Source: JAWOFN01 sp046497505 [NCBI: bacterium]
Lineage (GTDB): Bacteria > Blakebacterota > Blakebacteria > Blakebacterales
Assembly (NCBI GenBank): GCA_046497505.1
Contig: JAWOFN010000107.1
Coordinates: 1-6,954, forward strand
Direction of reading: 5' to 3'
DNA: 6,954 nt
The notes below the pieces were generated by a model. It was given only the letters and a program-made list of their open reading frames with translations. It was not told where the DNA came from and made no database searches. Below, piece by piece: positions 1 to 6,953 of this stretch; position 1 is the stretch's first letter, and every line of letters starts with the position of its first letter. Both the position numbers and the translations under genes were made by a program.

Positions 1-1
1 C

Positions 2-607
2 GGAGATGGAGATGTATACTACATGGTTTCTTATGATAACGGAGTGACGTGGGATAGTGGTGTCGAGATCGCGGGAAGTTCTACAGATTATGCTCCCGCC
101 GCTTTAGCAGTGAACGGGAGCACGGTGCACGTGGTGTGGGTGGAGTATGATGGCTCGGATTATTATATATGGTACCAGAACTCGACGGATAACGGGGGTA
201 GCTGGGGAAGTACACAGAGGTTGATTGGTCCAGTAGTGATGGCTGATGACCCAAGTATCACTTGTAATTCAACCTTTGTGTCATTCATTTGGGAAGATGG
301 TAGAGATGATGGTCAGTTTAGCAACGAAATATACATTAAGAATTCTACTAATTCAGGAGGTACTTGGGGAGTTAATACGAGATTAACTGATCAATCGGGT
401 GATGTCGATGGTCCACGGATAACGATGACCGAAGGTAAAAAGTATGTAGTGTGGTGGGATGATAGACATGGAAATGAAGAGATCTACTTCAAGTGTTCAC
501 CCGACTTCACGAGTGTTCCCGAGTTTCCGAATCTGTTGATGCCAGTTCTTGCTGTTCCTGCGATAATTTTTCTTTACGAACGGATACGGAAAACTTCTAA
601 AAACTAA
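2..607 (+). CDS. Asp-box (BNR/sialidase-like) repeat surface protein with PEF-type C-terminal anchor, 5' partial
   Basis: The frame is open from the left edge, so the true start lies outside the window; an ATG at 23 is internal to a repeat. 201 residues are visible. Three Asp-boxes (S-x-D/N-x-G-x-T/S-W) occur at about residues 10-17, 61-68 and 115-122, each followed by a strand and a 'VVW/FIW...D/E' core strand, the pattern of beta-propeller blades. A fourth blade core (VVWWDDR) has lost its Asp-box. The end is a typical archaeal sorting signal: a V-P-E-F-P motif at about 172-176, a hydrophobic segment, then a basic tail (YERIRKTSKN). Such PEF-CTERM-like tails are processed by archaeosortases in euryarchaea, so an extracellular, membrane-tethered protein is inferred. 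Asp-box repeats alone do not indicate sialidase activity and no catalytic residues can be assigned; the substrate or partner is unknown. Moderately AT-rich codon use matches the next gene, not the region after 1200. Confidence 0.85.
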   Translation, partial: GDGDVYYMVSYDNGVTWDSGVEIAGSSTDYAPAALAVNGSTVHVVWVEYDGSDYYIWYQNSTDNGGSWGSTQRLIGPVVMADDPSITCNSTFVSFIWEDGRDDGQFSNEIYIKNSTNSGGTWGVNTRLTDQSGDVDGPRITMTEGKKYVVWWDDRHGNEEIYFKCSPDFTSVPEFPNLLMPVLAVPAIIFLYERIRKTSKN

Positions 608-620
608 TGTAAAATTTTTA

Positions 621-636
621 CCGAAGTTTTATATAC
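621..636 (+). promoter_or_regulatory. Archaeal promoter: BRE-like CCGAAG plus TATA box TTTATATA
   Basis: The element TTTATATA (628-635) matches the archaeal TATA consensus TTTAWATA and is preceded by a purine-containing BRE-like CCGAAG (621-626). Archaeal transcription starts about 25 nt downstream of the TATA box, here around 655-660, leaving a 25-30 nt leader that holds the ribosome binding site of the gene starting at 685. The position in a 77-nt gap just after the stop of the upstream gene supports it. The start site is inferred, not seen. Confidence 0.75.
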
Positions 637-669
637 GCTCGAGTCATTACCTTTTTCGATCGTTAAATT

Positions 670-677
670 AGGAGGAG
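670..677 (+). promoter_or_regulatory. Ribosome binding site AGGAGGAG
   Basis: AGGAGGAG ends 7 nt before the ATG at 685 and fixes that codon as the start. It is a near-perfect match to the anti-Shine-Dalgarno sequence. Confidence 0.85.
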
Positions 678-684
678 AATACCG

Positions 685-1200
685 ATGTACAATAAGCATA
701 GATTGAGTAAATCTGTATGTGTTTTAGTGACTTTTATGTTGATCGTCAGTGCTGTTGTTGTATTACCTGTTGGTGGAAAGGCGAACAGCGGAGGAAAAGA
801 AAAACAAGATATTCCGAACGACGGTGTTCCTCAACTGAATGTGGAATCTGTTTGGTCTGAAGATTCTGTTGTATATCTCGGTGAGGAAAACAAGATGTGG
901 CTCAGTATTTCGAATAAAGGGAACGGGAGCAGTAAGAAAACGATTGCTAATGTGACTGATATCAAGCCTGACGGTTCGGAAGAGTTGATAACGAGTCTGC
1001 ATTTCGGGAATATGGTACCTGGAATGGAGCAGAAAAGACCGTTCAACTGGTCTCCTGAGGGTAGGGGAATACATTACCTGAAAGTCGATGTTACAGGAGA
1101 GTATGTAGAACACCATTCGAAGCCCGTGGAAATGAGTACGAGTACAATGTTGAGTTCTGCTTTTCCAGTGAATCCTACTTATTCGAATGAACCGATATGG
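685..1200 (+). CDS. Secreted protein with Ig/CARDB-like domain, 3' cut by the sequence junction
   Basis: The start at 685 is supported by the AGGAGGAG site and the upstream TATA box. Residues 1-9 are polar and basic, 10-29 form a hydrophobic signal sequence or N-terminal anchor, and a lysine/glycine-rich linker follows. From about residue 50 to 150 there is a beta-rich segment with the alternation of a CARDB/Ig-like domain: a 'V.LGEENKMWLSISNKGNGSS' stretch, then a 'GMEQKRPFNW' and a 'HYLKVDV' strand. Such domains are common adhesion or spacer modules in archaeal surface proteins. The last residue with host-like composition is W172. Beyond about 1200 the frame stays open to 2226, but that part is a Pro/Gly/Arg/His-rich antisense reading of bacterial DUF58 and MoxR genes and is not real protein. 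The native length is therefore unknown. With the upstream Asp-box protein it suggests an archaeal cell-surface locus. Specific function is not recognisable. Confidence 0.8.
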
Positions 1201-1213
1201 GACCTCCCCCCCC
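1196..1213. other. Junction between archaeal-type and bacterial-type sequence
   Basis: Left of here the DNA is moderately AT-rich with archaeal promoter signals and plus-strand genes. Right of here it is very GC-rich with minus-strand bacterial genes. The DUF58 protein is family-like up to E245 (codon at 1206-1204); the next codons (P, Y, R, F, I, R) read antisense through the archaeal gene. The archaeal frame is host-like up to W172 (1198-1200). A run of eight C lies at 1206-1213, immediately on the bacterial side. The exact breakpoint cannot be placed better than a few bases. Confidence 0.85.
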
Positions 1214-1938
1214 TCCATCCCCTCCAGGAGGGCCTCCTCGGGGAAGTCGAAGTCCACCTCGCGAGAATCGAGGACACGGAAGACGATGACCTCGTGCTTG
1301 CGGTGCCGCAGGTGCCGGAGACCCAGGCCCACCCGTCGGGGATCGTCCAGGAGGTCGGAGAAGAGGATCACCAGCCCCCGGCGGTCCAGCCGTTCGGCCA
1401 GCTCCCCCAGCACCGATCCACCGTCCGTCCCCTCCCGGGTCTCGAGACCTTCCAGTTCCCCCAGCAGGGGATGGAGCCAGGAGGATACGCTCCTGGGGGG
1501 GAGCATGCGGCGCATCCGCTCGTCGTAGGTGACCAGACCCACCGCGTCCCGCTGTCTGAGCATCAGGTAGGCCAGGGCGGCGGCGAGCTGCCGGGCGTAG
1601 GTGATCTTGGTGATCTCCCCCGACCCGTAGCCCATCGACCCGCTGGCGTCCATCACCAGGTGGGAGCGGAGGTTGGTCTCCTCCATGAAGGTCTTCACAT
1701 AGTAGCGGTCCGACTTGGCGTAGAGGCGCCAGTCCAGGTAGCGGAGGGCGTCGCCGGGCTGGTAGGGACGGTGTTCGGCGAACTCCACGCTGAAACCGTG
1801 GTAGGGGCTGCGGTGGAGTCCGGTGACGAACCCCTCCACCACCAGACGCGCCACCAGGTCGAGGTCCTCCAGGCGGGAGAGGGCCACCGGGTCGAGCCGC
1901 CTCCCCGCATCCCGGGCCGGGGCGCCGAGGGCGCTCAC
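1201..1938 (-). CDS. DUF58 (MIDAS/vWA-like) protein, C-terminus cut by the junction
   Basis: The start is GTG at 1938-1936, overlapping the MoxR stop by four bases (GTGA), which implies translational coupling. The family signature is clear: H-x-S-P-x-x-G-x-S-x-E-F at about residues 42-53, R57-x-Y-x-x-G-D63 and R-x-x-D69-W, followed by the metal-ion-dependent adhesion site D97-x-S99-x-S101 in a 'VMDASGSM' strand. A later strand 'GLVILFSDLLDD' and the 'FPEEALLEGMEGGE' segment are also typical of the family. No transmembrane segment is present, as in the soluble subgroup paired with MoxR. About 245 residues are native; the family usually runs to roughly 290, so about 40-50 C-terminal residues are missing beyond the junction. 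DUF58 proteins are thought to act with MoxR ATPases in assembly or maturation of complexes; the substrate here is unknown. The open frame down to 763 is an artefact of crossing the junction. Confidence 0.92.
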
Positions 1939-2936
1939 GGCGGCGGCACCTCCCCCAGCAGGCCCTCCACCACCTGGAGGGCATCCACGTCCTCCGCCTC
2001 GGCGGTGAAGTTGGTCACCAGCCGGTGGCGGAGCACGCCCCGGGCGGCACGTCGGATGTCCCCGTCATCGGGGGTGAGGCGCCCGTCGAGCAGGGCCCGG
2101 GCCTTGGCCCCCAGGACCAGGTACTGGCTGGCCCGGGGACCGGCCCCCCAGCGGAGCCACTCCCTGGCGCAGACGGCGGCCTCCTCCTCCCCGGGTCGGG
2201 TGGCCCGGACCAGGCGGACCGCGTAGTCCACCACCTCCTCGGTGACCGGGACCCGCCGGACCAGTGCCTGGTAGGCCACCACCTCCTCGCCCGTGAGGAC
2301 CGGTTCGGTGACCGGCTGCAGTTCTCCGGTGGTGCGGAGGACGATCTCCCGCTCCTCCTCCGGGGAGGGGTAGTCGATCCAGATGTTGAACATGAACCGG
2401 TCCAGCTGCGCCTCGGGGAGGGGGTAGGTGCCCTCCTGTTCGATGGGGTTCTGGGTGGCCAGGACGAAGAAGGGCGGGGTGAGGGAGTAGTCCTCTCCCC
2501 CGGCGGTGACCTTGTGCTCCTGCATCGCCTCCAGCAGTGCCGCCTGGGTCTTGGGGGGGGTACGGTTGATCTCGTCCGCCAGCACCACGTTGGCGAAGAT
2601 CGGACCCTTCATGAAGCGGAAGACCCGCTCCCCGCTGCTCCGGTCCTCCACCAGGACCTCGGTACCGGTGATGTCGGAGGGCATCAGGTCGGGGGTGAAC
2701 TGGATCCGGGAGAAGCGCAGGTCCAGGGCGCCGGCCAGGCTGGAGACCAGGAGGGTCTTGGCCAGCCCCGGCACCCCGACGAGCAGCACATGCCCACCGG
2801 ACAGCAGGGCGGTGAGCAGGTCTTCCACCACCCGGTCCTGCCCCACGATGACCCGGCCCAGCTCGGAGGTGAGGCGTCCCGCCGCTCCCGCCAGGGCCTC
2901 GGCGGCCTCCACATCGTCCTGCGGGATGGTGCTCAT
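1935..2936 (-). CDS. MoxR-family AAA+ ATPase
   Basis: This is a 333-residue AAA+ chaperone-type ATPase, a usual length for the family. Walker A is G54-V-P-G-L-A-K-T61, Walker B is V117-V-L-A-D-E122 followed by I-N-R, sensor 1 is A-T-Q-N-P at 160-164, and the P-E-A-Q-L-D-R-F block is at 174-181. A C-terminal helical lid follows from about residue 215. I chose the ATG at 2936 because it has a GAGGGAG site (2944-2950) seven nt upstream and begins the family-typical N-terminus. A longer frame back to 3005 would encode a non-conserved stretch across a DnaA box. The gene heads a unit with DUF58 (4-nt overlap). MoxR proteins use ATP hydrolysis to activate or assemble partner complexes, commonly with vWA/DUF58 proteins. 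Transcription probably starts in the 188-nt gap upstream, which carries DnaA boxes, so control by DnaA is possible but unproven. Confidence 0.95.
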   Translation of the reverse strand: MSTIPQDDVEAAEALAGAAGRLTSELGRVIVGQDRVVEDLLTALLSGGHVLLVGVPGLAKTLLVSSLAGALDLRFSRIQFTPDLMPSDITGTEVLVEDRSSGERVFRFMKGPIFANVVLADEINRTPPKTQAALLEAMQEHKVTAGGEDYSLTPPFFVLATQNPIEQEGTYPLPEAQLDRFMFNIWIDYPSPEEEREIVLRTTGELQPVTEPVLTGEEVVAYQALVRRVPVTEEVVDYAVRLVRATRPGEEEAAVCAREWLRWGAGPRASQYLVLGAKARALLDGRLTPDDGDIRRAARGVLRHRLVTNFTAEAEDVDALQVVEGLLGEVPPP

Positions 2937-2943
2937 CTGCTCG

Positions 2944-2950
2944 CTCCCTC
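2944..2950 (-). promoter_or_regulatory. Ribosome binding site GAGGGAG for the MoxR gene
   Basis: GAGGGAG on the minus strand lies 7 nt before the ATG at 2936. It favours this start over the upstream in-frame start at 3005 and so leaves the DnaA-box cluster outside coding sequence. Confidence 0.6.
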
Positions 2951-2980
2951 TTCGGGCCCGGTGACCGACTGACAACGTGT

Positions 2981-3114
2981 TGTGGATAACCCGTGAACCC
3001 CTCACTCAGACAGCCCTGCTATCTCCCCGGCCGACTTAAGGATAGCGGGTTATCCACGGGGCGCCGGGGGTTCTCCACATCCCTCTCCCGGGGTGTGGAC
3101 GACGGTGTGGATAA
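2981..3114. other. DnaA-box cluster: candidate oriC or DnaA-controlled region
   Basis: The 188-nt gap between the AtpI-like gene and MoxR (2937-3124) holds five DnaA-box-like 9-mers. Two are perfect TTATCCACA, both on the minus strand (2981-2989 and 3106-3114). One is TTATCCACG on the plus strand (3050-3058). Two are degenerate: TTCTCCACA on plus (3071-3079, one mismatch) and TGTGGACGA at 3094-3102 (minus orientation, two mismatches). The three best boxes share a 12-bp extension, GTGGATAACCCG. Clustered boxes in a non-coding gap about 1.8 kb from parB are what chromosomal origins often look like. Points against: no dnaA or dnaN is in view, there is no clear AT-rich unwinding element (only a short CTTAAGGATA stretch near 3035-3044), and parAB is transcribed toward the cluster. 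A DnaA-regulated promoter for moxR is the alternative. Confidence 0.6.
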
Positions 3115-3118
3115 CCCG
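2982..3118. repeat. Three copies of a 12-bp sequence GTGGATAACCCG in alternating orientation
   Basis: GTGGATAACCCG is exact at 2982-2993 and 3107-3118 on the plus strand and at 3046-3057 on the minus strand (read there as CGGGTTATCCAC). Starts are 64 and 61 bases apart. Copies two and three form an inverted repeat that encloses a shorter inverted pair, TCCACA (3074-3079) and TGTGGA (3094-3099). Conservation beyond the 9-bp DnaA box suggests the CGGG flank is part of the recognised site. Confidence 0.85.
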
Positions 3119-3124
3119 GGTCCC

Positions 3125-3523
3125 TCACCCCCGCCATCGGCCCGTGACCAGCCGGCCCATCTGCCAGAGATAGATGGTGAGGGGGACCGCCGCCAGGCCC
3201 AGAACGGTGGTCACCGGGGGGAGTCCGGCCACCAGGACCAGCAGGAGGAGGATGCCCCCCAGGAGGAGGTAGCGCAGGATGAAGCCGGCCGCCGAACGGT
3301 GTCCGGCGGCGATGGGGTCGCGTCCCTGCCGGGCCGCGCTGCGCATCTCGTGCATGAAGAGGCTCGTGGCCAGGAAGTTGGACGAACTCAGGACCGCTCC
3401 GGCCAGCAGGCCGAGCGCGTCCGTGGGACGTCCCGCCGCGGTCAGTCCCGCCGCCCCCGCGGCGGCCAGGACCAGGGCACCCAGGGCGTAGCGCCACGCG
3501 GTGCTCCAGAGGGGGTCGCCCAC
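3125..3523 (-). CDS. atpI: AtpI-like (ATP synthase subunit I family) small membrane protein
   Basis: The product is a 132-residue hydrophobic protein with four predicted membrane segments, at about residues 8-27, 33-53, 77-97 and 100-120. The segment 'GLLAGAVLSSSNFLATSLFMHEM' recalls the small-residue/Asn pattern of the second helix of ATP synthase I proteins (G-x-x-x-G...N), and the third begins with 'FILRYLL', also usual there. AtpI assists assembly of the rotor c-ring or Mg/Ca transport beside the F-type ATP synthase. I chose the GTG at 3523 because AAGGAGG (3528-3534) precedes it; the longer frame to 3649 only repeats antisense-like Arg/Pro-rich sequence inside the bactofilin gene. It lies 19 nt after the bactofilin stop and is probably the last gene of the operon. 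No ATP synthase gene follows, so the assignment is by similarity of pattern and remains moderate. Confidence 0.65.
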   Translation of the reverse strand: MGDPLWSTAWRYALGALVLAAAGAAGLTAAGRPTDALGLLAGAVLSSSNFLATSLFMHEMRSAARQGRDPIAAGHRSAAGFILRYLLLGGILLLLVLVAGLPPVTTVLGLAAVPLTIYLWQMGRLVTGRWRG

Positions 3524-3542: not shown

Positions 3543-4019
3543 TCAGGAGTCCCGGGACTCGGAACCCACCGGGACCTCCCGGTCGGTGCCCTGCCCGGAC
3601 GGTCCCCCGGAGGATCCCTGGGGGGAGGACTCCTTGCCCCCGCCCTCACGGGGACCGCCCTTCCCGGCCCGCTCCGCCTCCTCGCCCATCCGGCAGGTAC
3701 CGTTGAAGACCGCGCCCTCCTCGATGATCAGCTTCTTGGTCGTCACATCACCCATCACCGTGGACTTGCCTTCGAGGATGACCACCTCCTGGGCCTGTAT
3801 GTCCCCCTCCACGCGGCCGCCGATCGTAGCGCTCTTGACCTTCACGCTGGCTTCCACCACCCCGGTCTTCCCCACCAGCAGGGTGTCCGAGCAGTTGATG
3901 CGTCCCTTCACCTTCCCGTCCACCCGGATGCTGCTGGAGATGTTCAGCGTGCCCTCGATGACCGTTCCGTTCCCCACCAGGGTGTTCATCTGCCCATCGC
4001 CTGCTGCGCCCTTAGCCAT
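3543..4019 (-). CDS. Bactofilin
   Basis: The product is 158 residues. Residues about 10-112 are the bactofilin core, a run of short beta-strands in right-handed helix style with regular hydrophobic/glycine spacing: 'T.IEGTLNISSSIRVDGKVKG', then 'LLVGKTGVVEASVKVKSATIGGRVEGDI', then 'VVILEGKSTVMGDV' and 'LIIEEGAVFNG'. The first block with G-x-I-x-G-x-L and R-V-D-G-x-x-x-G is diagnostic. The last 45 residues are a Gly/Ser/Glu/Pro-rich disordered tail. Bactofilins polymerise without nucleotide and scaffold cell-shape or polar complexes on the cytoplasmic side. The ATG at 4019 follows a GAGAGGA site (4025-4031) that overlaps the stop of the M23 gene, so translation of the two is likely coupled (10-nt gap). 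The M23 neighbour and parAB upstream point to a role in wall shaping and/or chromosome positioning. Confidence 0.95.
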   Translation of the reverse strand: MAKGAAGDGQMNTLVGNGTVIEGTLNISSSIRVDGKVKGRINCSDTLLVGKTGVVEASVKVKSATIGGRVEGDIQAQEVVILEGKSTVMGDVTTKKLIIEEGAVFNGTCRMGEEAERAGKGGPREGGGKESSPQGSSGGPSGQGTDREVPVGSESRDS

Positions 4020-4029
4020 GTCCGTCCTC

Positions 4030-4857
4030 TCAGTATCTGGGTAGGTATCTGCGGGGATCCACGGACCGCCCGTCCTTCTGGACCTCGAAATGGAGGTGCG
4101 GCCCCGTGGTGACCCGCCCAGAGCTGCCCACGTACGCGATGATGTCCCCCTTGCTGACGATCTGTCCCTCTCTCACGGTGAGGCGGCTGCTGTGCCCGTA
4201 GCGGGTGATCATCCCCTCCCCGTGGTCGATCTCGAGCAGGTTCCCGTAGCTCTCATCCGTGCCGGCGAAGACCACCCGGCCGTCGGCGGCGGCCCGGACG
4301 ATGGTACCGCTGGAAGCCGCGATGTCCAACCCGGTATGTGCGGATCCCGCCGAACCCGCCCCCTCACCGAACTCCGAGGTCACGTAGCCCCGCACCGGCC
4401 ACGCGAAGAGCAGGCTGCCCGGGACGCTCTCCGGGACCTCGCTCTCCGTTCCCCGCGGCAGGGCGGTCTCGGTGATGGCGGTCCTGCCGCTCACCGCGCT
4501 GTCCGGGAGGCTCCCCAGCCGGTAGCGGAAGCCGGGCCAGTCCTCGGGCATCTCCACACCCAGGCGCGAGCGGATCTTGTAGTCGGTCTCCAGCAGGTCG
4601 CCCATGAGCTGCTCGAGCTCCCACACCTTCTGGACCTCCTGCATGAGGTCGGCGTTCTCCTCCTTCACCTCCCGCACCTCCACCGCCACCCGTGCCACCC
4701 GTCCGTAGGTGGCGATGCCGAGGCCGATGAGGACCACCAGGAGGGCCCCGAGTCCCACGAGCAGGCGCATCGCACCGGCGCTGAGCCGGAACTGCCGCGT
4801 CCCGCTCTCGTCGTCGGGGATGAACAGGATCGTCCAGCTGCGTCGCTTCTTGGCCAC
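4030..4857 (-). CDS. Membrane-anchored M23 (LytM) metallopeptidase
   Basis: The product is 275 residues. A basic N-terminus with the 'W-T-I-L-F-I-P' and 'R-x-F-R-L-S' pattern, common in bactofilin-linked peptidases, precedes one membrane segment at about 30-51. A coiled coil at about 55-95 follows, then a linker and the peptidase domain at about 150-272. Zinc ligands and catalytic residues are intact: H174-x-x-x-D178, H222 in 'YGHSS' and H254-L-H256, so an active peptidoglycan endopeptidase is expected outside the membrane. The start is GTG at 4857, 24 nt after the parB stop, with only a weak GGTG-type site upstream. Members of this group work with bactofilin in cell-shape control (Csd1/CcmA in Helicobacter, LmdC-type pairs in alphaproteobacteria), matching the bactofilin directly downstream. 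Overlap with that gene's ribosome site suggests co-expression at a fixed ratio. Confidence 0.95.
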   Translation of the reverse strand: MAKKRRSWTILFIPDDESGTRQFRLSAGAMRLLVGLGALLVVLIGLGIATYGRVARVAVEVREVKEENADLMQEVQKVWELEQLMGDLLETDYKIRSRLGVEMPEDWPGFRYRLGSLPDSAVSGRTAITETALPRGTESEVPESVPGSLLFAWPVRGYVTSEFGEGAGSAGSAHTGLDIAASSGTIVRAAADGRVVFAGTDESYGNLLEIDHGEGMITRYGHSSRLTVREGQIVSKGDIIAYVGSSGRVTTGPHLHFEVQKDGRSVDPRRYLPRY

Positions 4858-4881: not shown

Positions 4882-5811
4882 TCAGTCCAGGCTGATATCG
4901 AGCCTGTCGCAGATGCGCGTCAGGTCGTCCGCGGAGTAGTAGTCGATCTTCAGGGAACCCTTCTTCACGGACCCCTTGAGGGTCACCCGGGTCCCCAGGG
5001 CCCGCTGGAACTCTTCCACAAGGGCCTGGAGCCGGGGGGGGAGTTCCTTCTGCCCCCTCTTCCTCGGACCCTCCCCCTCATCATCAGCAGCGGCTTCCCG
5101 TACCAGCTTCTCGGTCGCCCGGACCGAGAGACCGCGGGCGATGATCTTCTTCAACAGGGTGATCCGGGCGCCGGAGCTGCCCAGCCCGAGGAGGGCCCTG
5201 GCATGGCCCTCGGTGATCTTCTCGTCCTTCACCGCCTGCCGTACCTGCTCCGGCAGGCTCAGCAGCCGCAGGGTGTTGGCCACCGAGGTGCGGCTCTTCC
5301 CCACCCGCTCGGCGATCTGTTCCTGGGTGAGACCGCAGTCGTCGGCCAGTCGGCGGTACGCGCGGGCGGTGTCCATCGCGTTGAGGTTCTCGCGCTGGAC
5401 GTTCTCCACGAGGGCCAGCTCCAGCATCTCCTCGTCGCTGTCCACCTCGTACACGATGGCCGGGATGCTCTTCAGGCCGGCGATCTCCGCCGCGCGGAGG
5501 CGGCGCTCCCCCGCTACCAGCTGGTAGGCCTCCTCCCCCTCCTCGTCCTCGACGGCCCGCAGCAGCACGGGCTGCAGGACCCCCTTCTCACGGATGGAGT
5601 CCGCCAGCTCCTCCAGCCCCTCCCTGGCGAAATCCTGGCGGGGCTGGAAGGGGTTGGGCCGGATCCGTCCGAGACGGACCTTGGTGACCGTGCCCGCCTG
5701 CCCGGGCCTGCCCGGTTTGCTCTTCCGGGCGGCGGCGGAAGAAGAGGATTCATCCCCCCCGGCGCCCGGGATCAGGGCATCAAGCCCTTTGCCGAGCGCT
5801 TTCCTTGCCAT
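4882..5811 (-). CDS. parB: Chromosome partitioning protein ParB (Spo0J family)
   Basis: The product is 309 residues, normal for chromosomal ParB. The N-terminus 'MARKALGKGLDALIP' is the ParA-interacting motif. The CTP-binding/clamp region contains the R-x-N-P-x-Q-P-R block at 51-58, 'GERRLRAA' at 101-108 and 'ENVQREN' at 136-142. The helix-turn-helix lies at about 161-184 (LTQEQIAERVGKS...), followed by 'ITEGHARALLGL' and a C-terminal dimerisation domain ending in 'LDISLD'. An acidic/Ser-rich linker occupies residues 20-40. I chose the ATG at 5811 because of a strong AAGGAGG site (5821-5827) and the conserved N-terminus; it overlaps the end of parA by 32 nt. ParB loads on parS sites, spreads as a CTP-dependent clamp and stimulates ParA. 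I found no parS-like 16-mer (TGTTTCACGTGAAACA) in the window. Confidence 0.97.
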   Translation of the reverse strand: MARKALGKGLDALIPGAGGDESSSSAAARKSKPGRPGQAGTVTKVRLGRIRPNPFQPRQDFAREGLEELADSIREKGVLQPVLLRAVEDEEGEEAYQLVAGERRLRAAEIAGLKSIPAIVYEVDSDEEMLELALVENVQRENLNAMDTARAYRRLADDCGLTQEQIAERVGKSRTSVANTLRLLSLPEQVRQAVKDEKITEGHARALLGLGSSGARITLLKKIIARGLSVRATEKLVREAAADDEGEGPRKRGQKELPPRLQALVEEFQRALGTRVTLKGSVKKGSLKIDYYSADDLTRICDRLDISLD

Positions 5812-6565
5812 GGGCGATGACCTCCTTGGTGAGGCTGATGTAGTTCTCGGCGCCGGTGGAGAGGATGTCGTACTGGATGATGGGCTTCCCGAAAGAGGGT
5901 GCCTCACCCAGCCGCACGTTCCGCATGATCTTGGTCGTGTACACCTTGTCCCCGAAATACCTCGCGGCCTCCTCCGCCACCTGCTTGGAGAGGTTGAGGC
6001 GGCCGTCGTACATGGTCAGCAGCACCCCTTCGATATAGAGGTTCGGGTTCAGATGCTTCTGGACCAGCCGGATGGTGTTCAGCAGTTTCCCGAGTCCCTC
6101 CAGGGCGTAGTACTCGCACTGGATGGGGATCATGACCGAGTCCGCGGCGGTGAGCGTGTTCAGGGTGAGGAGCCCGAGGCTGGGGGGACAGTCCACCAGG
6201 ACGAAGTCGTATTCCTCCCGGACCGACTCGATCGACTGCTGCAGCTTCTTCTCCCGGCCGATCATCGAGACCATCTCCAGTTCGGCGCCGGTGAGTCGGA
6301 TGTGGCTGGGCACCAGGTCCAGGTCGGTCACCGTGGTCTCCAGCAGGGCGTCCTCGATGTCGATCTCCTCGATGAGGGCCTCGTAGATGGTGAGGTCCAC
6401 GTCGTTGGGGTCCACACCCAGCCCCGAGGTGGCGTTGGCCTGCGGGTCGATGTCGATGAGCAGGGTCTCGTAGCCCTGCTCGGCCAGGCACGCCGAGAGG
6501 TTGATGGCGGTGGTGGTCTTCCCCACCCCGCCCTTCTGGTTGGCGATGGCGATGACTCGACTCAC
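5780..6565 (-). CDS. parA: Chromosome partitioning ATPase ParA (Soj family)
   Basis: The product is 261 residues, with the deviant Walker A K11-G-G-V-G-K-T-T18 starting just after the N-terminus, as in short chromosomal (type Ib-like) ParA without an N-terminal DNA-binding domain. Walker A' is 'LLIDIDPQANAT' (about residues 35-46) and Walker B is 'FVLVDCPPSLG' (about 120-130). The C-terminal basic/helix 'NVRLGEAPSFGKPI' is family-typical. The start is GTG at 6565, with AAGAAGG (6572-6578) 6 nt upstream inside the dikinase tail. Its codon begins one base after the stop of that gene, so coupling is likely. The 3' end overlaps parB by 32 nt and carries parB's ribosome binding site. ParA binds DNA non-specifically as an ATP dimer and drives movement of ParB-bound origins. 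Confidence 0.97.
   Translation of the reverse strand: MSRVIAIANQKGGVGKTTTAINLSACLAEQGYETLLIDIDPQANATSGLGVDPNDVDLTIYEALIEEIDIEDALLETTVTDLDLVPSHIRLTGAELEMVSMIGREKKLQQSIESVREEYDFVLVDCPPSLGLLTLNTLTAADSVMIPIQCEYYALEGLGKLLNTIRLVQKHLNPNLYIEGVLLTMYDGRLNLSKQVAEEAARYFGDKVYTTKIMRNVRLGEAPSFGKPIIQYDILSTGAENYISLTKEVIAHGKESARQRA
5821..5827 (-). promoter_or_regulatory. Ribosome binding site AAGGAGG for parB, inside parA
   Basis: AAGGAGG on the minus strand sits 9 nt before the parB ATG at 5811, within the codons for the 'LTKEVIAHG' end of ParA. It fixes the parB start against an upstream in-frame start at 5907 that would add a low-complexity Ser/Pro stretch. Confidence 0.85.
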
Positions 6566-6566
6566 A

Positions 6567-6953
6567 TCAGACCTTCTTGGGGGGTTTGCCCGACCTGCGC
6601 TTGCCCTTCCCCTTCGACCGGGTCCGTCGGGTCCCGGACTTCTCCGCCTTCTGCTCGCGGGTAGGGCGCTCGCGCTCGGATGTCTCTACATGCTCCAGTA
6701 CCGCCTGGGCCGCCGCCAGGCGTGCGATTGGCACACGGTAAGGAGAACAGGAGACGTAGTCCAGCCCGACCTCGTGGAAGAAGGTCACGCTCTTGGGGTC
6801 GCCGCCGTGCTCTCCGCAGACCCCGATCTTCAGCTCCGGTTTCTCCTCCCTCCCCCGGTCGACGGCCATGGCCACGAGCTGGCCGATCCCCTCGATGTCC
6901 AGGGACTGGAAGGGGTCGTGGGGCAGGATCTCCTGGTCGATGTACTGGGGAAG
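6567..6953 (-). CDS. ppdK: Pyruvate, phosphate dikinase, C-terminal part, with a basic C-terminal tail
   Basis: The frame is open through the right edge; 128 residues of the C-terminal PEP/pyruvate-binding TIM-barrel domain are visible. The diagnostic '[10 protein letters not shown]' block carries the catalytic cysteine, and '[24 protein letters not shown]' is the usual last helix region. These distinguish it from PEP synthase and EI of the PTS. The enzyme interconverts pyruvate + ATP + Pi with PEP + AMP + PPi in the cytoplasm. Most dikinases end within a few residues of '...AAAQAAL'; here about 40 more follow, rich in Lys/Arg with repeated K-x-K and R-R, ending in 'KPPKKV'. It ends one base before the parA start. 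A second start-like GTG at 6875 is internal. The tail's role is unknown. Confidence 0.95.

What the first reader, a model, noticed from the sequence alone, without database searches (positions are those of the whole stretch)
2981..3114. Cluster of DnaA boxes next to a parAB operon: possible bacterial chromosome origin without dnaA beside it
Two perfect TTATCCACA boxes, one TTATCCACG and two degenerate boxes lie within 134 bp in the only sizeable non-coding gap of the bacterial part, about 1.8 kb from parB. The three best boxes share a 12-bp extended sequence with starts 64 and 61 bp apart. Origins commonly sit near parAB, but the usual dnaA/dnaN/mnmG genes are replaced here by atpI-like and moxR genes, which would be an unusual origin context. 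Caveats: parAB is oriented head-on to a fork leaving the cluster, and no clear AT-rich unwinding element is seen.
Basis: partly seen in the sequence, partly recalled or inferred. Interest (0 to 1): 0.72.

Follow-up and report, generated by a model that had tools for sequence, protein, structure and literature searches.

The report
Conserved replication-origin-like DnaA-box array
A short stretch between a chromosome-partition gene cluster and a moxR gene carries likely binding sites for the replication starter protein DnaA in an arrangement whose spacing recurs in two other groups of uncultured bacteria, so it may be where chromosome copying begins, away from the usual dnaA gene.

Summary
In detail: two perfect, one TTATCCACG and two degenerate DnaA boxes lie in the 188-bp AtpI-moxR gap, and none of 2000 shuffles has such a cluster. 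In gene direction three boxes form an array: left box A, left box B 21 bp on, inverted right box R 90 bp after A. The same array, exact or with shifted spacing, sits between parB or bactofilin and moxR in genomes of an Eisenbacteria phylum, and between gyrA or rpiB and moxR in the phylum of a Hydrothermota genome. It persists beside bactofilin or gyrA where moxR is not adjacent, and none of 23 unlinked moxR genes examined has a box in the upstream DNA held. A clade without it often has a spaced box array upstream of dnaA instead. An origin at this junction, about 10-15 kb from dnaA in five relatives, is the best reading, but it is unproven: GC skew decided nothing, the window's spacer is barely AT-enriched, no DnaA-trio was found, and no genome is held for the window. 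Rivals: a moxR control site, or an accessory DnaA site.

The parts
2937..3124 (.). non-coding gap between the AtpI-like gene and moxR that holds the DnaA-box array
   Evidence: gene calls and Pfam; sequence
3071..3079 (+). left box A (TTCTCCACA; TGTGGAGAA in gene direction)
   Evidence: 90 bp to R, as in G020 and in 7 of the 8 genomes among G042-G050 that have the array
3050..3058 (+). left box B (TTATCCACG), 21 bp from A and 69 bp from R
2990..3049 (.). 60-nt spacer between B and R, weakly AT-enriched (37% against 31% in flanks); possible unwinding region
   Evidence: function inferred
2981..2989 (-). inverted right box R (TTATCCACA), next to moxR
3106..3114 (-). additional perfect box TTATCCACA, not part of the shared A/B/R array
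3094..3102 (-). additional degenerate box TCGTCCACA
1935..2936 (-). moxR (AAA_3 ATPase), frequent neighbour of the array
   Evidence: Pfam; synteny
1200..1938 (-). DUF58 gene, cut off at the contig junction
   Evidence: Pfam
3125..3523 (-). AtpI-like gene
   Evidence: Pfam ATP-synt_I, 26.0 bits against cut-off 25.1
3543..4019 (-). bactofilin
   Evidence: Pfam
4030..4857 (-). M23 peptidase
   Evidence: Pfam
4882..5811 (-). parB
   Evidence: Pfam
5780..6565 (-). parA
   Evidence: Pfam

Best explanation
The gap holds a chromosome replication origin (oriC), or the DnaA-binding half of one. DnaA would bind the tandem left boxes A and B (two helical turns apart) and the inverted right box R, form an oligomer across the 60-nt spacer, melt it or adjoining DNA, and load the helicase. 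Shown here: the boxes, their spacing, and their recurrence in two other phyla with changing neighbours. Inferred: that DnaA binds, that DNA melts there, and that forks start there. The array keeps company with parAB, gyrA and moxR, while dnaA is not adjacent to it.
For: (1) Boxes at 90 and 69 bp from R in the window and in G020, G042, G043, G046-G050; both 10 bp further in G044; 89-90 and 68-69 in eight moxR-linked loci of the other phylum, L309-L313 and L315-L317 (the 89 of L315 is), though L309-L312 are near-identical. (2) In the Eisenbacteria phylum the pattern hits 22 sites in 18 of 47 genomes against 1 site for the reversed control; 19 of 22 sites (16 of 18 genomes) lie at the par/M23/bactofilin/moxR locus. 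(3) It does not need moxR: present without adjacent moxR in G002, G011, G012 (and G015, M23-like neighbour only) and beside gyrA without moxR in L291-L294; in G020 another open frame separates them. Of 30 moxR loci cut (30 of 47 genomes), the 7 linked to par or bactofilin have boxes and the 23 others have none in the upstream DNA held. (4) It does not need parB next to it: in seven genomes of the other phylum whose ParB place is known it is on another contig. (5) 16 of 19 genomes of the clade G022-G041 have at least two boxes of a spaced array upstream of dnaA (G030 shifted by about 24 bp), and 17 of 18 with a ParB hit have no box after parB in the DNA held. (6) The spacer is AT-richer than its flanks in 30 of 32 elements, but flanks include coding DNA.
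Against: No test places a fork here. G016 skew is void, because C1 is contigs joined by 97 gaps of 100 N in the 1.6 Mb held. In G018, a gap-free 340 kb, a local skew turn lies at dnaA, not at the array, and strand-corrected skew is uninformative. In G164, + strand markers fall 46 and 38 of 84 either side of the array (p 0.45; contig taken as closed and ordered, unchecked). Genes from rnpA to parB run head-on to a fork leaving the array towards dnaA. The window's spacer is GC-rich, and DnaA-trio runs are no longer than in shuffles (mean 0.91 against 1.16). dnaA upstream regions carry boxes in array genomes too (mean 2.07 against 2.41 in genomes without the array), and the 12-bp doublet is also seen in G006, G008 and G045 without the array pattern. 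In the other phylum control hits occur in 19 of 147 genomes.
Confidence: 0.57

Rival explanations
1. A DnaA-responsive control region of the moxR-DUF58 operon: DnaA bound at R and the left boxes couples transcription of this operon to the cell cycle.
For: In the 23 moxR-linked cases outside the window that were lined up, the order is left boxes, R, moxR, and R lies within about 120 bp of the extrapolated moxR start in all but G020. In several genomes of G042-G050 a CATAC-like stretch recurs between R and moxR and could be a promoter part (seen by eye).
Against: The array persists where moxR is not adjacent (G002, G011, G012; L291-L294), an open frame separates them in G020, and 23 of 23 unlinked moxR genes examined lack boxes in the upstream DNA held, including those of G011 and G012.
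Confidence: 0.18
2. An accessory DnaA site near the origin (titration or reactivation site in the manner of datA or DARS, or one lobe of a split origin), with unwinding at the dnaA-rnpA region about 10-15 kb away.
For: dnaA upstream regions in array genomes keep boxes, 9 of 15 with a doublet 12 bp apart; genes diverge around dnaA-rnpA, and G018 has a local skew turn there; no strong unwinding element in high-GC members.
Against: Its recurrence beside gyrA or rpiB and moxR in another phylum, and its absence from the clade that has a spaced array upstream of dnaA, fit a main site better. This is indirect. An argument from G016, where dnaA and the array seemed far apart, was dropped because the sequence is a string of joined contigs; the weight of this rival was raised for that reason.
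Confidence: 0.2
3. A chance cluster or a box-like motif of another regulator.
For: The whole-window count of boxes with up to 2 mismatches is within chance; left box B in relatives drifts to GGTGGAAAA.
Against: 0 of 2000 shuffles and recurrence of the spacing in other phyla.
Confidence: 0.05

Closest known systems
Bacterial oriC in a gene context other than the dnaA cluster, as in Escherichia coli (review PMC4285127, section 4 read)
   Same: DnaA boxes in a gap outside the dnaA gene cluster, with a context conserved within groups; box spacing matters by helical turns
   Different: neighbours are parB, bactofilin, gyrA or rpiB and moxR; compact 99-bp three-box core; no demonstrated unwinding element
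Thermotoga maritima oriC (PMC10316083, passages seen)
   Same: short minimal origin (149 bp) with five DnaA boxes, one of opposite direction
   Different: T. maritima needs three TAG repeats in its unwinding element; no run of TAG, TAA or AAG triplets in the window's array region
Split origins of Bacillus subtilis and Helicobacter pylori (PMC4285127, PMC10316083, passages seen)
   Same: two DnaA-box groups, one near dnaA
   Different: here the second group is about 10-15 kb from dnaA in five relatives rather than one gene away
datA/DARS-type accessory DnaA sites (recalled, from no call)
   Same: DnaA boxes outside the origin proper
   Different: linkage to parB, gyrA and moxR in two phyla and inverted boxes around a spacer

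Membership tests
bacterial oriC | cluster of DnaA boxes in a non-coding gap | tested here: met
bacterial oriC | conserved orientation and helical-phase spacing of boxes among relatives | tested here: met
   A-B 21 bp, A-R 89-90 bp (100 in G044) in the main series; other spacings (75-76, 83/75, 86/66, 97/89) in other clades
bacterial oriC | AT-rich unwinding element or DnaA-trio | tested here: inconclusive
   spacer AT above flanks in 30 of 32 elements, but only 37% in the window; trio runs not above shuffles
bacterial oriC | GC-skew inflection at the site | tested here: inconclusive
   no genome for the window; G016 void, G018 and G164 not decisive
bacterial oriC | origin-proximal gene neighbourhood | tested here: met
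   parAB in the window and Eisenbacteria phylum; gyrA in the other phylum
bacterial oriC | DnaA binding, unwinding, autonomous replication, fork start | not testable with these tools
   needs experiments
moxR control region | array present wherever moxR is, and absent where moxR is absent | tested here: not met
   0 of 23 unlinked moxR genes have a box in the upstream DNA held; array present without adjacent moxR. Part against this: in the other phylum it is beside moxR in 11 of 30 loci cut
parS (ParB site) | TGTTTCACGTGAAACA-like site (consensus recalled) | tested here: not met
   0 matches with up to 3 mismatches in the window

The most novel reading that the evidence does not exclude
A distinct origin type: a compact A/B-spacer-R array that starts replication at the parB- or gyrA-moxR junction in several uncultured phyla, held in place by its neighbours rather than by dnaA, and exchanged in one clade for an array upstream of dnaA, so that the origin has moved within one gene neighbourhood during evolution.
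Probability: 0.4. Interest if true: 0.72.

Novelty: new variant of a known kind. Interest (0 to 1): 0.56.

Why it matters
A common shortcut is to place origins at dnaA. If this array is the origin, its fixed spacing gives a sequence signature for finding origins in metagenome-assembled genomes that lack dnaA linkage or usable skew, would improve growth estimates based on coverage, and offers a natural series for studying how an origin moves within its gene neighbourhood.

Tried and rejected
GC skew as a locator. G016:C1 (2,690,529 bp; 80 of about 135 stretches of 20 kb read) was first taken for a complete chromosome. Two-arm fits put the origin at 0.16, 2.54, 0.24 and 0.16 Mb by four measures, with neither the array (0.60 Mb) nor dnaA (2.33 Mb) best. 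Its order, and so the skew and the 0.96 Mb between dnaA and array, mean nothing and are not used. G018:C14 (340 kb, no N) and a strand-biased 9-mer in G164 were indecisive. In one search the list was cut: only the + strand hits of G164 were whole, so G165 and G166 gave nothing.

The window's own genome or a close relative: none held; the ParB scan of genome contigs gave six loci at 34-46% identity. A ParA+ParB tree of 51 sequences puts the window outside the Eisenbacteria phylum, near sequences of the phylum of the Hydrothermota genome, with weak support (0.72). In the phylum of G001 the pattern hit 25 of 396 genomes against control hits in 17; no loci were cut and neighbours were not examined.

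parS in the window: none. Structured RNA: no Rfam match at gathering scores. DnaA-trio: not enriched. In some searches the loci L296-L299, L309-L313 and L315 are turned by the pattern and so run opposite to moxR; one search gives them along moxR.

Literature (open-access PMC text only): no paper holds 'replication origin', 'DnaA box', 'parB' and 'moxR' together, nor 'DnaA boxes', 'moxR' and 'oriC'; 'oriC' with 'Eisenbacteria' gave one paper on bird microbiomes, and 'moxR' with 'origin of replication' and 'DnaA' gave three. Broader searches gave 207, 46 and 53 papers, of which only the first 10-15 listings were seen.

Full report
What is there. The window looks like a join of two sources: positions 1 to about 1200 are low-GC (about 40-45%) with a CARDB-domain protein, then GC jumps to about 70% at a run of C near 1203 and the DUF58 gene is cut off. 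The bacterial part reads, on the minus strand, a PEP-utilising enzyme C-terminus (pyruvate phosphate dikinase-like, by recall), ParA, ParB, M23 peptidase, bactofilin, AtpI-like, gap, MoxR, DUF58. No whole genome is held for the window.

The observation. Over the whole window, loose matches are not in clear excess (13 against 8.7). The cluster is: 0 of 2000 dinucleotide shuffles of the bacterial part reach four boxes with up to one mismatch in 134 bp, or two perfect boxes that close.

The array in relatives. A ParB scan found a distant relative in a record titled Candidatus Eisenbacteria with the order ParA-ParB-M23-bactofilin, which gave access to 47 genomes of its phylum (phylum names here come from record titles). 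In part of these the order parA-parB, with or without M23-bactofilin, leads to moxR-DUF58, and a box array lies in the gap. The pattern GTGGANAA - 60 to 90 bases - TTATNCACA occurs at 22 sites in 18 of 47 genomes, against 1 site for the reversed pattern. Nineteen of the 22 sites, in 16 of the 18 genomes, lie at this locus; in 12 genomes moxR follows (in G016 only its first 34 residues before an assembly gap); G015 has only an M23-like neighbour. Three sites (the second of G020, and those of G026 and G035) have none of these neighbours.

Geometry. In gene direction the window has left box A, B 21 bp further, and inverted R 90 bp after A. G020, G042, G043, G046, G047, G048, G049 and G050 have exactly 90 and 69 bp to R (B with up to two mismatches); G044 has 100 and 79, one helical turn more. 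G016-G018 have left boxes at 89-90 and at 97-107; G002 and G012 have a single left box at 75-76, G011 one at 76 and a weak one at 64. Of 147 genomes of the phylum of the Hydrothermota record (L003), 70 have the pattern; the reversed control hits 19, so some hits are chance. Thirty loci were cut, from 30 of the 70 genomes; 11 have the array beside moxR. Of these, L309-L313 and L317 have 89 and 68 bp, L316 90 and 69, L315 68 (and 89), and L296, L298 and L299 have 83 and 75. In four others (L291-L294) it lies beside a gyrA-like gene with no moxR (86 and 66 bp), and in L296, L298 and L299 between a gyrA-like gene and moxR. By Pfam, gyrA was checked in L292, L296 and L299, and rpiB in L310, L313 and L317 (in L317 another open frame lies between). 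In G060 (L295) a box cluster lies between dnaA and dnaN instead.

What moves with what. The array is kept where moxR is not adjacent (G002, G011, G012) and an open frame has come between in G020. Of 30 moxR loci cut in the Eisenbacteria phylum (of 47 genomes), the 7 linked to par or bactofilin have boxes upstream and the 23 others have none in the upstream DNA held (up to 700 bp; less in G013, G032 and G039). In the other phylum, parB is on another contig than the array in the seven genomes of these loci where its place is known (G062, G069, G081, G091, G093, G106, G108), but these are fragmented assemblies. dnaA lies about 10-15 kb away on the same contig in G012, G018, G043, G044 and G048, with dnaA-rnpA-yidC-mnmE-mnmG-parAB order seen in G018, G043, G044 and G048 (rnpA itself not matched in G043 and G044).

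Arrays upstream of dnaA. In 42 genomes up to 900 bp upstream of dnaA were read. Of the 15 with the element, 9 have a box doublet 12 bp apart near the gene; so do G006, G008 and G045, which lack the pattern. In the clade G022-G041, 16 of 19 have at least two boxes of an array spaced about 80 and 90 bp, G037 and G038 have one and G028 none; 17 of 18 of that clade with a ParB hit have no box after parB in the DNA held, which is only about 60 bp in G025. Mean box numbers upstream of dnaA hardly differ (2.07 with the element, 2.41 without). This could be a move of the origin, but a dnaA promoter array would also fit.

Tests that did not decide. G016:C1 is contigs joined by N gaps, so its skew fits and gene distances are void. 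In G018, gap-free over 340 kb, a local skew turn lies at dnaA and strand-corrected skew is uninformative. A strand marker in G164 gave 46 against 38 of 84 + strand hits either side of the array (p 0.45). No DnaA-trio excess was found. The spacer is AT-richer than its flanks in 30 of 32 elements, weakly so in the window.

Reading. [quoted passage not shown]). The array fits that description. I hold 'origin or its DnaA-binding half' at 0.57, 'accessory DnaA site or lobe with unwinding at dnaA' at 0.20 and 'moxR control region' at 0.18. The first figures were 0.60 and 0.17 for the first two; they were changed because the G016 evidence fell away. By kind this is an origin outside the dnaA context, which is known. 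No listing seen in the searches describes such a design at a parB/gyrA-moxR junction.

Noticed in passing
window 1-1203: Low-GC sequence with a CARDB-domain protein joined abruptly at a C run to 70% GC bacterial DNA; the DUF58 gene is cut at the join. Probably a chimeric contig.
   Followed up: partly
window 6567-6953: A PEP-utilising enzyme C-terminus (PPDK-like) lies directly upstream of parA, where several relatives have the mnmE-mnmG neighbourhood.
   Followed up: partly
L056-L064 and L250-L282 (upstream of dnaA): Two different box layouts upstream of dnaA in one phylum: a doublet 12 bp apart in some genomes, two or three boxes about 80 and 90 bp apart in another clade.
   Followed up: partly
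L039 and the other stretches of G016:C1: A 2.69-Mb 'single contig' genome that is really short contigs joined by 100-N gaps, one of them cutting moxR beside the array; unfit for skew or distance.
   Followed up: yes
   Followed up: no
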